From assembly GCF_001905005.1 (NCBI RefSeq), contig NZ_LWKZ01000001.1, positions 1,305,775 to 1,369,774 on the forward strand: DNA of 64,000 bases, in the 5' to 3' direction. The translations under genes and the position numbers were made by a program. The stretch is from Streptomyces sp. CB02923. GTDB lineage: Bacteria > Actinomycetota > Actinomycetes > Streptomycetales > Streptomycetaceae. The notes beneath the pieces are model-generated. The model was not told the DNA's origin. It was given only the letters and a program-made list of their open reading frames with translations, and did not search any database. Shown here piece after piece: positions 734-32,146 of this stretch. Position 1 is the first letter of the stretch. Every line of letters starts with the position of its first letter.

Positions 734-2395
<1,662 letters not shown>

Positions 2396-2510
2396 CTACG
2401 TCTGGGGGAGGGTGGATACTCCGGACCGCGCTGGCGCCCGCGACGGACGGTCTGCGTGCCGGTGGTTCCTTGCCCCACCTGCCCGCGGACCTCACCGAGT
2501 CGGTCCTTAG

Positions 2511-2537
2511 CTGTCACTCTCACTCGTAGAGTGCTAA
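2511..2537 (-). promoter_or_regulatory. CIRCE-like operator 1 (HrcA)
   Basis: Read on the minus strand this is TTAGCACTC, a 9-nt spacer, then GAGTGACAG. The consensus is TTAGCACTC-N9-GAGTGCTAA. The first half-site is perfect and the second matches 6 of 9 positions. It lies about 150 bp upstream of the groEL start. Confidence 0.75.
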
Positions 2538-2545
2538 CGCAATGA

Positions 2546-2572
2546 TTAGCACTCGACCCATGAGAGTGCAAG
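2546..2572. promoter_or_regulatory. CIRCE-like operator 2 (HrcA)
   Basis: Read on the plus strand this is TTAGCACTC, 9 nt, then GAGTGCAAG, with one perfect half-site and one matching 7 of 9 positions. Its centre is 35 bp from that of operator 1. The two outer arms are degenerate and the two adjoining inner arms are perfect. Confidence 0.7.
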
Positions 2573-2698
2573 CGCGTTGGCGGGAGCCATCCCCGCGGAG
2601 GACGGGTGTCAAACCGGAGACGCCCGGTCGACCTGGCGCCTCCCCCCGGCGACCTGCCGCTCCCCCACGGCACGCCCCTCCACCCCACCCAAACACAG

Positions 2699-2732
2699 AA
2701 GGTCCGCGCCCCCCGCAGGGGACGCGGACCTT
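2699..2732 (-). terminator. Terminator hairpin of cold-shock gene
   Basis: AAGGTCCGCG at 2699-2708 pairs perfectly with 2723-2732, and the loop can extend the stem through C/G runs. It begins 24 bp beyond the cold-shock stop codon. Confidence 0.8.
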
Positions 2733-2756
2733 CGTACGCAGCAGTCGGTCGGCGCT

Positions 2757-2960
2757 TCAGCCGGCCACGCGGACCATGTCCGCCTGCGGCCCTTTCTGGC
2801 CCTGCGAGATCTCGAACTCGACCCGCTGACCCTCCTCAAGGGTGCGGTAACCGTCCATCTGGATCGCGCTGTAGTGGACGAATACATCCGCACCACCGTC
2901 GACCGCGATGAAGCCGTACCCCTTCTCCGCGTTGAACCACTTGACGGTGCCCTGAGCCAT
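2757..2960 (-). CDS. Cold-shock domain protein (CspA family)
   Basis: A 67-residue single cold-shock domain, the normal CspA length. It is a five-stranded OB fold that binds single-stranded RNA or DNA and acts as an RNA chaperone. RNP1 is KGYGFI at 13-18 and RNP2 is DVFVHY at 25-30; the family usually has VFVHFS, so the Tyr is a mild variation. The start [10 protein letters not shown] is chosen because it matches the family N terminus and has GGGGAG about 10 nt upstream; an in-frame ATG 30 bp further out lacks such support. The spacer of about 300 bp upstream is AT-rich for this genome and probably holds a long leader, as cold-shock genes often have. A terminator hairpin follows. Confidence 0.95.
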
Positions 2961-3302
2961 GCCTAACTCCCCTATTACTGGCCCTTGCACAGGACCGCAC
3001 TCCGCGGACCCGGGTCAGACCTCACCCCCCGACAGGAGGGGGTGTGCGCCGGAACGCGTCGACCGCCGCTGAATGTATCTGTCCAACTGCCCAGCGCAAC
3101 AGGTCAGTCGGACGAGAATTCTGCTCGCGAACAATCGCGCATAAGTGGAGAAAAGGCCTTGTTCCAGGGCAAGTCGGGCCGGGCAAAGCTCACCAACGCG
3201 ACAAATCATGTCCACACTTCGCGCACAACTTGCCGGGGTCTCATATGCGTTCGGCACGCGCTGGACGGGGAATCACCCCAACTGTATCGCCTTTAACAAC
3301 AT
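2961..3302. other. AT-rich intergenic leader region, no gene seen
   Basis: This 340-bp interval between the cold-shock gene and the metMO terminator is clearly richer in A+T than its surroundings, especially 3110-3300. I see no ORF with a ribosome-binding site. It most likely carries the promoter and 5' untranslated leader of the cold-shock gene. Confidence 0.5.
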
Positions 3303-3399: not shown

Positions 3400-3678
3400 T
3401 CAGCAGCCGCCGGCCACCGCCGGGATGATCGAGACGCCCGCGCCGTCCGGCGTCGGCGTCGCCAGGCCCTGCTCGAAGCGCACGTCGTCGTCGTTGACGT
3501 AGACGTTCACGAAGCGGCGCAGCTTGCCGGTGTCGTCCAGGACGCGGGCCGCGATGCCGGCGTGGTTCTTCTCCAGGTTCTCGATGACCTCGGAGAGGGT
3601 CGCCCCCTCGGCGGCGACCTCGGCCTGACCGCCGGTGTAGGTGCGCAGGATGGTCGGGATGCGGACGTTGACGCTCAT
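3400..3678 (-). CDS. metO: MoaD/ThiS-type sulfur-carrier protein (MetO/CysO-like)
   Basis: A 92-residue ubiquitin-fold sulfur carrier. The start MSVNVRIPTI has GGAAGG upstream and matches CysO-type proteins; a longer in-frame ATG would add an implausible Pro/Ala-rich tail. The C terminus reads AVAGGC: the diglycine that becomes a thiocarboxylate is followed by one extra Cys, so it would need trimming, as described for QbsE-like and some CysO-like proteins processed by JAMM peptidases. It lies downstream of the threonine-synthase-like gene behind the same SAM riboswitch, and a terminator follows. I recall reports that such a pair (MetM-MetO) makes homocysteine from O-phosphohomoserine in Streptomyces, with the carrier donating sulfur. 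Family assignment is firm; the methionine role is inference from context. Confidence 0.85.
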   Translation of the reverse strand: MSVNVRIPTILRTYTGGQAEVAAEGATLSEVIENLEKNHAGIAARVLDDTGKLRRFVNVYVNDDDVRFEQGLATPTPDGAGVSIIPAVAGGC

Positions 3679-3818
3679 GGTGTTCTGCCTTCCAGCTTGC
3701 GGGAGGGGTACGTAGGGGGCGGGCGCGGATGCACCGGCGCCCGCAGGCGCGGACGGAGGCATGCCGACGCGTACGGGTGTGTACGGCGGCGTACGGGGTG
3801 AACCGCCGCGCGCGGCGG

Positions 3819-5108
3819 TCAGCTCGCCAGACCGGCGGCGCGGAACGCCTCCAGGCTCGGCCGGATGGTGGCCGTGGGCCCGGTGGTCGGCGCGACCGCG
3901 TCCAGCGTCTTGAGCCCGTCGCCGGTGTTCAGCACGACGGTGGTCAGCGCCGGGTCGAGCAGACCGTCCTCGATCAGCTTCTTCGTCACGCCCACGGTCA
4001 CACCGCCGGCGGTCTCCGCGAAGATGCCCTCCGTACGGGCCAGCAGCTTGATCGCGTCGACCACCTGCGCGTCGTCGACGTCCTCGACCGCGCCGCCGGT
4101 GCGCCGGGCGATGTCGAGCACGTACGGGCCGTCGGCCGGGTTGCCGATGGCCAGCGACTTGGCGATGGTGTCGGGCTTCTGCGGCCGTACGACGTCGTTG
4201 CCCGCCTTGAAGGCCGTGGAGACCGGCGAGCAGCCCTCGGCCTGGGCGCCGAAGATCTTGTACGGCCGGTCCTCGACCAGTCCGAGCGCGATCAGCTCCT
4301 TCAGACCCTTGTCGATCTTCGTGAGCTGGGAGCCGGAGGCGATCGGGATGACGATCTGGTCCGGCAGCCGCCAGCCGAGCTGCTCGCAGATCTCGTAGGC
4401 GAGGGTCTTGGAACCCTCGCCGTAGTACGGGCGCAGGTTGACGTTGACGAAGCCCCAGCCCTCGCCGAGCGGGTCGCCGATCAGCTCCGAGCAGAAGCGG
4501 TTGACGTCGTCGTAGTTGCCCTCGATGCCGACCAGCTCGCCGCCGTACACCGCGGCCATGACGACCTTGCCCGCCTCCAGGTCGTGCGGGATGAACACAC
4601 AGGAGCGGAAGCCGGCGCGGGCCGCCGCGGCGCCCACCGCGCCGGCGAGGTTGCCGGTGGAGGAGCAGGACAGGGTGGTGAAGCCGAAGGCGCGGGCGGC
4701 CTCGACGGCGATGGCGACGACGCGGTCCTTGAAGGAGTGCGTCGGGTTGCCGGAGTCGTCCTTGACGTACAGGCCGCCGGTGACGCCCAGCTCACGGGCC
4801 AGGTTGTCGGCCTTGACCAGCTTGGTCAGGCCGGGGTTGAGGTTGGGCTTGTCCGCGACGTCGGCCGGGACGGGCAGCAGCGGCGCGTAACGCCAGATGC
4901 TGTTGGGGCCCGCCTCGATCCGCTTGCGCAGCCCCTCGGGGTCGCCGGTCGGCAGGTCGTACGCCACCTCCAGCGGCCCGAAACAGGACGCGCAGGCGAA
5001 GATCGGGCCGAGGTCGAAACGCTCGCCGCACTCGCGGCAGGACAGCGCGACGGCGGGACCCAGGGAGACGCTGGCGGACGTGGTGCTTTCAGCGGATTGC
5101 ACAGCCAT
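3819..5108 (-). CDS. metM: Threonine-synthase-like PLP enzyme, probable O-phosphohomoserine-dependent homocysteine synthase (MetM)
   Basis: A 429-residue fold-type II PLP enzyme of the threonine synthase family. An N-terminal zinc-ribbon-like segment has Cys at 24, 27, 39 and 42. The PLP lysine is K127 in NPTHSFKDR, and the phosphate-binding loop is CSSTGNLAGAVGAAAARAG. The start MAVQSAEST is chosen because AAAGGG lies 10 nt upstream; the ORF extends further but runs into the riboswitch. The leader carries a SAM-I riboswitch, which fits methionine rather than threonine synthesis, and the next gene encodes a sulfur carrier. Both point to MetM, which uses O-phospho-L-homoserine and thiocarboxylated MetO to give homocysteine. 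The alternative is an ordinary threonine synthase (thrC); no hom or thrB gene is adjacent, which weakens that reading. Confidence 0.8.
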   Translation of the reverse strand: MAVQSAESTTSASVSLGPAVALSCRECGERFDLGPIFACASCFGPLEVAYDLPTGDPEGLRKRIEAGPNSIWRYAPLLPVPADVADKPNLNPGLTKLVKADNLARELGVTGGLYVKDDSGNPTHSFKDRVVAIAVEAARAFGFTTLSCSSTGNLAGAVGAAAARAGFRSCVFIPHDLEAGKVVMAAVYGGELVGIEGNYDDVNRFCSELIGDPLGEGWGFVNVNLRPYYGEGSKTLAYEICEQLGWRLPDQIVIPIASGSQLTKIDKGLKELIALGLVEDRPYKIFGAQAEGCSPVSTAFKAGNDVVRPQKPDTIAKSLAIGNPADGPYVLDIARRTGGAVEDVDDAQVVDAIKLLARTEGIFAETAGGVTVGVTKKLIEDGLLDPALTTVVLNTGDGLKTLDAVAPTTGPTATIRPSLEAFRAAGLAS

Positions 5109-5127
5109 GGAGGCGAGGCCCTTTCTC

Positions 5128-5281
5128 CTCATCTTCCTCGCGACGCATCTCGCCACGAGACGGAATTGGCACCTTCCCGAGCCGGGAGCCTCGCGGGCCG
5201 CACGCGATGTGCGGCGACGGAGACCGGCTGGAGGGTTGCCGGGGCTTCAACGGGCCGTATCCCTCTGCCCCTCTGGATGAG
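5128..5281 (-). ncRNA. SAM-I (S-box) riboswitch in the metM leader
   Basis: Read on the minus strand, the leader has the S-box core. CTCATC (5281-5276) opens P1, followed by CAGAGGGG and GAGGGA for P2, then GCCCCGGCAACC, the conserved GGTGCCAATTCC, and a P4 hairpin TCTCG-TGG-CGAGA. GATGAG at 5133-5128 closes P1. That 3' strand runs straight into GAGAAAGGG, the Shine-Dalgarno region of metM. P1 formation on SAM binding would therefore tend to mask the ribosome-binding site, suggesting translational control. No intrinsic terminator with a U tract is seen between the aptamer and the gene. Confidence 0.9.
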
Positions 5282-5446
5282 CGGTATGGCGCTGGGCCGG
5301 GACCCAGGCGTTTGTCGCGCCGACCCCGGCATGTCCGGGACGATCGCGTTGTTCAAGACTGTAGCCGAAGGGGTGGGCGGTCGAGACAGCCGTCCGCACC
5401 GCGAGATGGATCACATCGCTGGTCCGGGAACGAAGGAGAAGCGCAC

Positions 5447-30959: not shown

Positions 30960-30975
30960 AGTGGACTACACCACT
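30960..30975. promoter_or_regulatory. DasR-like operator (dre) upstream of msiK
   Basis: AGTGGACTACACCACT matches the dre consensus ACTGGTCTAGACCACT at 13 of 16 positions, the best of the three dre-like sites in the window. It lies 50 bp upstream of the msiK start. DasR control of msiK has been reported in S. coelicolor. Confidence 0.7.
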
Positions 30976-31024
30976 CCTTTTACTCGGATCGTCCGGCACG
31001 TTCCTGCCGGTGAAGGGACACACC

Positions 31025-32146
<1,122 letters not shown>

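What the first reader, a model, noticed from the sequence alone, without database searches (positions are those of the whole stretch)
3400..5281. SAM-riboswitch-controlled threonine-synthase-like gene plus sulfur carrier: a MetM/MetO homocysteine route
Seen: a threonine-synthase-family PLP enzyme, a MoaD/ThiS carrier ending GGC, one operon, and a full SAM-I aptamer in the leader. Known: SAM-I riboswitches control methionine and sulfur genes, not threonine synthesis. I recall reports of MetM and MetO in Streptomyces making homocysteine from O-phospho-L-homoserine with thiocarboxylated carrier as sulfur donor. Inference: this locus is such a pathway and is likely misannotated as thrC. The gene order fits, and no hom or thrB gene is nearby.
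Basis: partly seen in the sequence, partly recalled or inferred. Interest (0 to 1): 0.82.

Follow-up and report, generated by a model that had tools for sequence, protein, structure and literature searches.

The report
Riboswitch-controlled methionine gene pair, misnamed thrC
A SAM-riboswitch element stands in front of a gene whose relatives are filed as threonine synthase and a small sulfur-carrier gene, a pair predicted to make homocysteine, the precursor of methionine, by a route already reported in Streptomyces; in a survey of 196 related genomes the same riboswitch preceded every one of the 135 copies of the gene that were found.

Summary
In detail: a full SAM-I aptamer (73.5 bits, the only one found in the genome), a threonine-synthase-family gene and a ThiS/MoaD carrier ending AGGC lie in that order on the minus strand. 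In 196 class-level genomes, 135 of 135 metM genes carry SAM-I upstream, 135 of 144 SAM-I hits are at metM, and 192 of 196 genomes have metM, a strong metX match or metA. MetM is a clade apart from ThrC with fixed changes at aligned positions. The pathway is not new: Hasebe et al. 2024 (paper not held; known through passages in PMC12172450). Not found in print by my searches: adjacent metO is missing in 16 of 80 loci on at least three branches; those genomes keep the CysO carrier, and half lack a strong metX. This predicts that MetM can draw sulfur from the cysteine carrier. MetO's terminal Cys would have to be trimmed before use. Homocysteine synthesis is inferred, not assayed here.

The parts
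5126..5283 (-). SAM-I (S-box) riboswitch aptamer, RF00162
   Evidence: cmscan 73.5 bits, cut-off 44.4, full length; only match found in the genome
5276..5281 (-). P1 helix 5' strand CUCAUC, pairs with 5133-5128
   Evidence: alignment; minimum-energy fold (the fold as a whole is not significant against shuffles, z -1.31)
5119..5133 (-). P1 3' strand GAUGAG (5133-5128) running into a purine-rich ribosome-binding stretch: GAGGAG (5130-5125, overlaps P1, but 16 nt before the ATG, which is long) and AAAGGG (5124-5119, 10 nt before the ATG, just outside P1). Probable translational expression platform
   Evidence: sequence; GATGAG in the aptamer's last 18 nt in 77 of 80 fetched loci, an SD-like motif at or behind the aptamer's end in 78 of 80, no control made. 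Function inferred
3819..5108 (-). metM homologue (threonine-synthase-family PLP enzyme, 429 aa); relatives are filed as threonine synthase
   Evidence: MetM clade apart from ThrC
4983..5039 (-). N-terminal four-cysteine motif CxxC...CxxC (Cys24, 27, 39, 42), zinc-ribbon-like
   Evidence: four Cys in 65 of 65 aligned MetM; no aligned residues in the 5 ThrC rows, 4 of which are database alignment segments that start downstream, so only the genome's own ThrC speaks to absence
4728..4730 (-). predicted PLP lysine Lys127 in NPTHSFKD
   Evidence: aligned to NPTGSFKD of threonine synthases; its role is recalled family knowledge
3400..3678 (-). metO homologue, ThiS/MoaD-fold sulfur carrier, 92 aa
   Evidence: PF02597 62 bits; MetO side of the carrier tree
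3403..3405 (-). terminal Cys codon after Gly-Gly: a C-terminal cap that would have to be removed
   Evidence: sequence; same cap in 18 of 63 fetched metO and 48 of 79 named loci; a Streptomyces carrier with a single C after GG, PtmS3, is described in PMC6006322 (passage)

Best explanation
The pair at 5108-3819 and 3678-3400 is homologous to metM-metO of Streptomyces: MetM likely converts O-phospho-L-homoserine to homocysteine, predicted to take its sulfur from the thiocarboxylated Gly-Gly end of MetO, and the SAM-I aptamer ahead of it (5283-5126) would shut translation of metM down when SAM is plentiful. Steps shown here: the genes, the aptamer, the separate thrB-thrC-hom cluster that would supply the substrate, no match in the searches for metX, metA and a metY/metZ-type protein, and a MoeZ-like E1 with a rhodanese-like stretch as the only strong ThiF-family protein found. 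Steps inferred: the terminal Cys of MetO is trimmed (probably by the Mec-like JAMM protein encoded near cysO-cysM), MoeZ adenylates and sulfurates the exposed glycine, MetM forms a PLP-bound vinylglycine-type intermediate from phosphohomoserine that the thiocarboxylate attacks, and homocysteine is then freed by hydrolysis, alone or by Mec after an S-to-N shift as in the CysM/CysO route. SAM binding would hold helix P1 closed and hide the ribosome-binding site.
For: Aptamer and genes. Separate thrC with thrB and hom. No MetX (two partial hits of 22.5 and 20.4 bits), no MetA, and neither full-length PF01053 protein is over a MetY/MetZ cut-off among the 25 best models shown for each. 135 of 135 metM genes in 196 genomes have SAM-I upstream on the same strand, median gap 34 nt to the first aligned residue; 135 of 144 SAM-I hits are at metM; metM without a strong metX in 74 genomes, both 61, strong metX only 56, neither 5, one of those five having metA. 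MetM-ThrC split SH-aLRT 99, with fixed differences where Thermus threonine synthase has Thr88, Ser155, Asn157, Arg160, Gly187, Asn188 and Ala189. MoeZ-like E1. JAMM protein, cysO and cysM within about 6 kb. Published: MetM of S. albulus as homocysteine synthase with an upstream SAM riboswitch and a role in preventing methionine auxotrophy, as told in PMC12172450 (passages); SCO4293 and SCO4294 of S. coelicolor grouped with sulfate-assimilation genes on arrays (PMC2267785, passages; that these are the orthologues is recalled).
Against: No activity was measured. A MetB-like protein, a cystathionine gamma-lyase and CBS are in the genome, so a transsulfuration route is not excluded. 61 of 135 metM genomes also carry a strong metX match. 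16 of 80 metM loci have no metO, so the carrier is not strictly tied to the enzyme. The Microcystis relative makes threonine and 2-oxobutyrate in vitro and did not raise methionine in cells (PMC12172450). NCBI's thrC model scores MetM over its cut-off. The SD that overlaps P1 lies 16 nt from the ATG, long for one, and the leader's fold is not better than shuffles. The survey's SAM-I search scored only 18 candidates a genome with strict filters, so SAM-I away from metM may be undercounted. The Hasebe paper itself could not be read.
Confidence: 0.87

Rival explanations
1. The gene is a second, ordinary threonine synthase that has come under SAM control to balance threonine against methionine at the phosphohomoserine branch.
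For: TIGR00260 thrC scores 265 bits over its cut-off; database names say threonine synthase; the Microcystis relative has threonine synthase activity in vitro (PMC12172450).
Against: A full thrB-thrC-hom cluster exists elsewhere; a carrier gene follows in 63 of 80 loci; positions shared by all five ThrC aligned differ in 98-100% of 65 MetM; shutting off a threonine enzyme when SAM is high would serve no plain purpose (inference); metM and metX tend to replace each other.
Confidence: 0.05
2. Homocysteine in this strain comes mainly from the MetB-like enzyme joining cysteine to phosphohomoserine, as plant cystathionine gamma-synthase does, and MetM-MetO is a side route or makes another thio compound.
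For: MetB-like protein over its model cut-off, no MetX or MetA found to feed it an acyl-homoserine. Plant use of phosphohomoserine is recalled.
Against: The only SAM-I found in the genome is at metM, not at metB. CBS and a cystathionine gamma-lyase point to the reverse direction. S. albulus MetM is reported as a homocysteine synthase that prevents methionine auxotrophy (PMC12172450). A beta-lyase outside PF01053 was not searched for.
Confidence: 0.06
3. MetM uses free sulfide in the cell, and MetO is an accessory or serves another thiolation reaction.
For: 16 of 80 metM loci lack metO, at least three times independently. A Streptomyces carrier of the same capped type, PtmS3, worked in vitro in thioacid antibiotic synthesis (PMC6006322).
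Against: metO lies directly behind metM in 63 of 80 loci, overlapping or close, and is a carrier clade of its own; thiocarboxylated MetO as donor is reported in the 2024 work (recalled; the paper is not held).
Confidence: 0.12

Closest known systems
MetM-MetO homocysteine route of Streptomyces albulus (Hasebe et al. 2024, doi 10.1128/aem.01247-24; not held, known here through passages of PMC12172450 and recall)
   Same: Threonine-synthase-like gene, sulfur carrier next to it, SAM riboswitch upstream, Streptomyces. S. noursei B-3066, recalled as a near relative of S. albulus, has MetM 90%, MetO 92%, SAM-I 78 bits and the same GGC end.
   Different: Another species; the letters of S. albulus MetM were not at hand, so identity to it was not measured.
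CysO-CysM-Mec cysteine route (Mycobacterium tuberculosis; PMC3227635, passages)
   Same: Phosphoamino-acid substrate, PLP enzyme, thiocarboxylated ThiS/MoaD carrier, MoeZ as activator. The best solved match to MetO is 3dwg_C, which I recall as CysO.
   Different: Enzyme is of the threonine synthase branch, substrate one carbon longer; a cysO-cysM pair and a JAMM gene are also in this genome, separately; MetO and CysO are two sides of one branch.
Threonine synthase ThrC (2zsj, 6cgq, 1uim, 2d1f)
   Same: Same fold family, predicted PLP lysine motif, same substrate by inference; 37% identity to the genome's own ThrC.
   Different: N-terminal four-Cys motif, fixed changes at aligned positions, SAM-I leader, carrier gene.
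Capped sulfur carriers PtmS2/PtmS3 and the thioquinolobactin and PDTC carriers with JAMM proteases (PMC6006322, passages; the names QbsE and PdtH are recalled)
   Same: A residue or two behind the Gly-Gly; PtmS3 has a single Cys, as here.
   Different: Those are described in secondary metabolism; here the carrier stands in a predicted primary methionine operon.

Membership tests
MetM-MetO homocysteine pathway | Threonine-synthase-like gene distinct from the genome's own thrC | tested here: met
   second thrC with thrB and hom; separate clade
MetM-MetO homocysteine pathway | ThiS/MoaD carrier gene directly downstream with a C-terminal Gly-Gly | tested here: met
   PF02597; ends AGGC, so the Gly-Gly is capped by one Cys
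MetM-MetO homocysteine pathway | SAM riboswitch in the leader | tested here: met
MetM-MetO homocysteine pathway | Genome lacks acyl-homoserine routes (metX/metA with metY/metZ) | tested here: met
   for PF01053 only the 25 best models per protein were shown; a MetB-like protein is present, see next row
NF005871 682.6 bits, over cut-off.
MetM-MetO homocysteine pathway | Makes homocysteine from O-phospho-L-homoserine with thiocarboxylated carrier | not testable with these tools
   needs enzyme assay
Threonine synthase (ThrC) proper | Residues conserved in solved threonine synthases | tested here: not met
   Thr88, Ser155, Asn157, Arg160, Gly187, Asn188, Ala189 of the Thermus enzyme replaced in 98-100% of 65 MetM; identical in all 5 ThrC aligned. 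Their roles in the Thermus enzyme are recalled
Threonine synthase (ThrC) proper | Scores over the curated thrC model | tested here: met
   TIGR00260 265 bits, cut-off 167; the model does not separate MetM
SAM-I riboswitch | Full aptamer over the Rfam gathering score in a 5' leader | tested here: met
   73.5 bits, cut-off 44.4
SAM-I riboswitch | Binds SAM and represses expression | not testable with these tools
   needs in-line probing and reporter
CysO carrier | Falls with CysO in a carrier tree | tested here: not met
   MetO (49 rows) and CysO (29 rows) are opposite sides of one branch, SH-aLRT 99, 91 columns, quick method

The most novel reading that the evidence does not exclude
MetM is not bound to MetO: in several actinobacterial lineages the metM riboswitch-gene unit has lost its own carrier and draws sulfur from CysO, so a single thiocarboxylated carrier, charged by MoeZ, feeds both cysteine and homocysteine synthesis. 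In Streptomyces the dedicated carrier is often made as an inactive Gly-Gly-Cys precursor, which looks like the CysO-cysteine adduct that the Mec protease cleaves, so methionine synthesis would depend on the protease of the cysteine route.
Probability: 0.35. Interest if true: 0.55.

Novelty: new member of a known kind. Interest (0 to 1): 0.36.

Why it matters
It settles, as far as sequence can, that a gene filed as threonine synthase in Streptomyces is most likely the methionine-branch enzyme, and shows that SAM-I before metM held in every metM copy found among the sampled Actinomycetes and made up most of the SAM-I riboswitches found there. The signature residues and the constant riboswitch give annotators a simple test to tell MetM from ThrC. 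The metO-less lineages and the capped carrier make two open questions of the pathway directly testable: which carrier MetM can accept, and which protease opens MetO.

Tried and rejected
Ordinary threonine synthase: rejected on the separate thrB-thrC-hom cluster, the residue pattern and the riboswitch. Metagenome and viral collections: not scanned. The C23 protein (third threonine-synthase-like PALP, 32%) took a branch of length 10 in the tree, so its place means nothing; it was left out of the residue table. The same tree warns of long ThrC branches that may meet falsely; only the split between MetM and ThrC is used. Fold significance of the leader: z -1.31, not significant; the case for the aptamer rests on the covariance model. 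Association of metO loss with metX: none (metX in 26 of 63 with metO against 8 of 16 without, Fisher p 0.58). Association of metM with lack of metX: p 9e-11, but relatedness is ignored. TIGR01392's 500-bit cut-off is passed by none of the 196 genomes and none of the 14 controls, so presence of metX was called by E; 'strong' means at least 313 bits. Structure prediction not run: homology to solved threonine synthases was clear already. A script that listed all ORFs of four stretches printed too much and was cut. A search for literature on Thermus active-site residues gave nothing of use. Rows dropped: L096 (contig ends inside metM) from both trees and from the count of metO-less genomes; 15 near-identical Streptomyces loci (L124-L138) from both trees; G007 (38% hit with a stop, no SAM-I) from the metM counts; five weak or partial metX hits (G017, G046, G119, G151, G180) were counted as lacking a strong metX. 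The MetO query carried one extra codon before the ATG.
Full report
What is there. On the minus strand of the window lie a complete SAM-I aptamer (5283-5126; 73.5 bits), a 429-residue PLP-dependent enzyme of the threonine synthase family (5108-3819) and a 92-residue ThiS/MoaD-fold carrier (3678-3400) that ends in Gly-Gly-Cys. The aptamer is the only RF00162 match found in the genome (150 of 507 first-look candidates scored). The carrier's start is the ATG at 3678, and 140 nt separate the two genes.

Is it the genome's threonine synthase? No. A second thrC (319.8 bits against TIGR00260) lies with thrB (212.2 bits, TIGR00191) and hom (547.9 bits, NF004976) at C1:259-263 kb, about 1 Mb away. MetX has only two partial hits, 22.5 and 20.4 bits, and MetA none at E 1e-20. 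PF01053, the family of MetB, MetC, MetY and MetZ, has two full-length members, one further partial match over the cut-off (33.3 bits, 106 positions) and five below it. Of the full-length ones, one is over the cut-off of a cystathionine gamma-synthase model (NF005871, 682.6 bits) and one over that of a cystathionine gamma-lyase (NF005758, 548.6 bits); no MetY or MetZ model among the 25 best shown for each is passed (43 and 42 families matched in all). Cystathionine beta-synthase is present (TIGR01137, 698.3 bits). A cystathionine beta-lyase outside PF01053 was not searched for.

The sulfur side. The genome has one strong ThiF-family protein (283 bits; the next scores 57.2 with its neighbours in the frame) whose 425-codon frame also holds a rhodanese-like stretch (read by eye from the translation), as in MoeZ, the enzyme that sulfurates CysO in mycobacteria (PMC3227635, passages). 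A JAMM protein (PF14464), a CysO-like carrier (PF02597) and a cysteine synthase (TIGR01136) lie within about 6 kb of each other on contig C12 (stretch L013), apart from the window. The window's carrier is 56% identical to that CysO.

Survey. I searched 196 genomes of the class, at least 90% complete, with the SAM-I model, MetM, MetX, MetO and MetA. SAM-I: 140 of 196 genomes, 144 hits, 138 genomes over the cut-off; this search scored 18 candidates a genome with strict filters, so weaker SAM-I away from metM may be missed. MetM at E up to 1e-60: 136 of 196; one (G007, 38%, with a stop, no SAM-I) is not MetM, leaving 135, all at 59% identity or more. A script on the tables finds SAM-I on the same strand upstream of 135 of 135 metM genes (gap to the first aligned residue 11-894 nt, median 34), and 135 of 144 SAM-I hits at metM. 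MetX at E up to 1e-40: 122 of 196, five of them weak or partial. MetM without a strong MetX: 74 genomes; both: 61; strong MetX only: 56; neither: 5, of which G069 has MetA, G180 has a part of metX and G071 a SAM-I cut by a contig end. Fisher p is 9e-11, but the genomes are related, so this is only descriptive. MetA: 4 of 196.

Family. In a tree of 65 MetM (64 loci and the window), 5 ThrC and the C23 paralogue, MetM and ThrC are separated with SH-aLRT 99 (quick method, long ThrC branches). In the alignment positions that are the same in all five ThrC are replaced in 98-100% of the 65 MetM: Thermus Thr88 to Leu, Ser155 to Asn, Asn157 to Arg, Arg160 to Tyr, Gly187 to Ala, Asn188 to Ser, Ala189 to Gly, among others. 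That these line the substrate and PLP-phosphate sites is recalled from the Thermus structures, not checked. An arginine is thus moved by three positions in the loop but kept, which would fit a phosphate-bearing substrate with a different reaction at its gamma carbon; this is inference. All 65 MetM have four cysteines at the N-terminus (CxxC, CxxC). Four of the five ThrC rows are database alignment segments that begin downstream of that region, so only the genome's own ThrC speaks to their absence.

Riboswitch layout. In 77 of 80 fetched loci the last 18 nt of the aptamer hold GATGAG, in 80 of 80 the first 14 nt hold a CTCATC-like partner, in 78 of 80 an SD-like tetramer (GGAG, GAGG, AGGA or AAGG) falls in the last 6 nt of the aptamer or the next 14, and in 71 of 80 an ATG follows within 35 nt. 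No control was made; the P1 letters are partly set by the Rfam model, and the aptamer's own end can supply the tetramer. In the window GATGAG (5133-5128) overlaps GAGGAG (5130-5125), but that lies 16 nt before the ATG at 5108, long for a Shine-Dalgarno; AAAGGG (5124-5119) is 10 nt from the ATG and just outside P1. A closed P1 helix would cover or crowd the ribosome-binding site. That is translational control by inference; the fold of the leader as a whole is not better than shuffles (z -1.31).

Carrier. Of 80 metM loci from 80 other genomes of the survey (one per genus plus further Streptomyces and a few others), 63 have metO directly downstream (gap about -10 to 180 nt) and 17 do not; one of the 17 (L096) is a contig that ends inside metM, leaving 16. 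Of the 63, 43 end in Gly-Gly, 18 in Gly-Gly-Cys, 1 in GGA and 1 in GGAG. Of 80 named Streptomyces and Streptantibioticus loci, 79 have metO, 48 ending GGC and 31 GG; in the one without (L207) the contig ends just behind metM. S. noursei B-3066, which I recall as a close relative of S. albulus, has MetM 90%, MetO 92% with GGC and SAM-I 78 bits. None of 29 CysO sequences ends exactly in GGC; 12 end in GG and 17 have other tails (counted by eye). PMC6006322 (passages) describes a Streptomyces platensis carrier, PtmS3, capped by a single C and another, PtmS2, by MV, and reports that deletion of the JAMM gene ptmS1 or of ptmS4 (the paper's 'MoaZ homolog') stops thioacid production while deletion of ptmS2 does not. 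So the cap was seen before; its place in a methionine operon was not said in the passages I read.

MetM without MetO. I searched 28 genomes with CysO, among them all 16 metO-less ones. All 28 have a CysO; in the 16 no second carrier was found at E 1e-5 except weak ones in G012 (33%) and G115 (37%). MetO and CysO rows are the two sides of one branch (SH-aLRT 99, but only 91 columns). The tree needs four changes of the metO label, at least three forced by well-supported branches. Eight of the 16 also lack a strong metX and none of the eight has metA. Either MetM takes sulfur from CysO there, or from sulfide, or these genomes make homocysteine otherwise. I find the first the likeliest single reading; for the novel case as a whole, trimming included, I put 0.35.

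What is known. PMC12172450 (passages) states that Hasebe et al. 2024 found MetM, a homocysteine synthase, in Streptomyces, with homologues in cyanobacteria and an upstream SAM riboswitch in S. albulus, and names metO of S. albulus as a relative of the carrier gene beside the Microcystis gene. The 2024 paper itself is not held; that MetO thiocarboxylate is the donor is recalled from its abstract. The Microcystis relative, 51.6% identical to S. albulus MetM, lacks the riboswitch, showed threonine synthase and deaminase activity, and did not raise methionine. PMC2267785 (passages) lists SCO4293 'thrC' and SCO4294 among sulfate-assimilation genes with a shared array profile, together with SCO2910-2912. 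PMC8079986 (passages) lists RF00162 before SLIV_16930-SLIV_16925 in S. lividans as 'Threonine biosynthesis'. PMC3293853 (passages) reports ArgR binding upstream of SCO4293. Searches for a published account of metO-less MetM or of the class-wide link to SAM-I gave none in their listings, but the library holds open-licence papers only and not the key paper.

Verdict. The reading is right and the system is known since 2024: a new member of a known kind, with a survey that extends it and two testable points, the shared carrier and the trimming of MetO. Activity, operon transcription, SAM binding and the release step are not shown here.

Noticed in passing
G000:C23:977559-978737 (L012:7545-9878, minus strand): A third threonine-synthase-like PLP protein in the same genome, 32% to MetM, below the curated cut-off of each of the six threonine synthase models it matches (e.g. 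NF006050 156 bits of 303, TIGR00260 103 of 167). Function unknown.
   Followed up: partly
L252 (G021) and L256 (G056): Two of the nine SAM-I hits away from metM precede an ABC transporter ATPase and an SsuA-family binding protein (TIGR01728, NMT1): possibly an importer of a sulfur compound under SAM control. Neither genome has metM.
   Followed up: partly
L255 (G100:C24:288093): A second SAM-I hit (57.2 bits) in a genome that also has the metM one; the next ORF is a peroxiredoxin.
   Followed up: partly
L254 and L257 (G132, G048): Second SAM-I hits of 59.6 and 45.7 bits in two genomes of one genus; the nearest downstream genes could not be made out clearly (a GNAT-family ORF overlaps one of them).
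   Followed up: partly
L253 (G027:C75:67592): SAM-I hit (60.7 bits) in a genome without metM; the first ORF downstream matches 2OG-Fe(II) oxygenase families (PF13640, PF22814).
   Followed up: partly
G039:C13:622790-624025 (in L087): metM match with one in-frame TGA; not examined further.
   Followed up: no
window 30968-31025 (+) and 30846-30773 (-): msiK RNA element (RF01747, 54 bits) and a tRNA gene on the other strand close by.
   Followed up: no
window 734-2990 (-): A groEL-type chaperonin gene and a cold-shock protein gene (recognised by eye) lie downstream of metO; by eye such genes also follow metM in some metO-less loci (L064, L068, L085, L100), so the neighbourhood can outlive the loss of metO.
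   Followed up: partly
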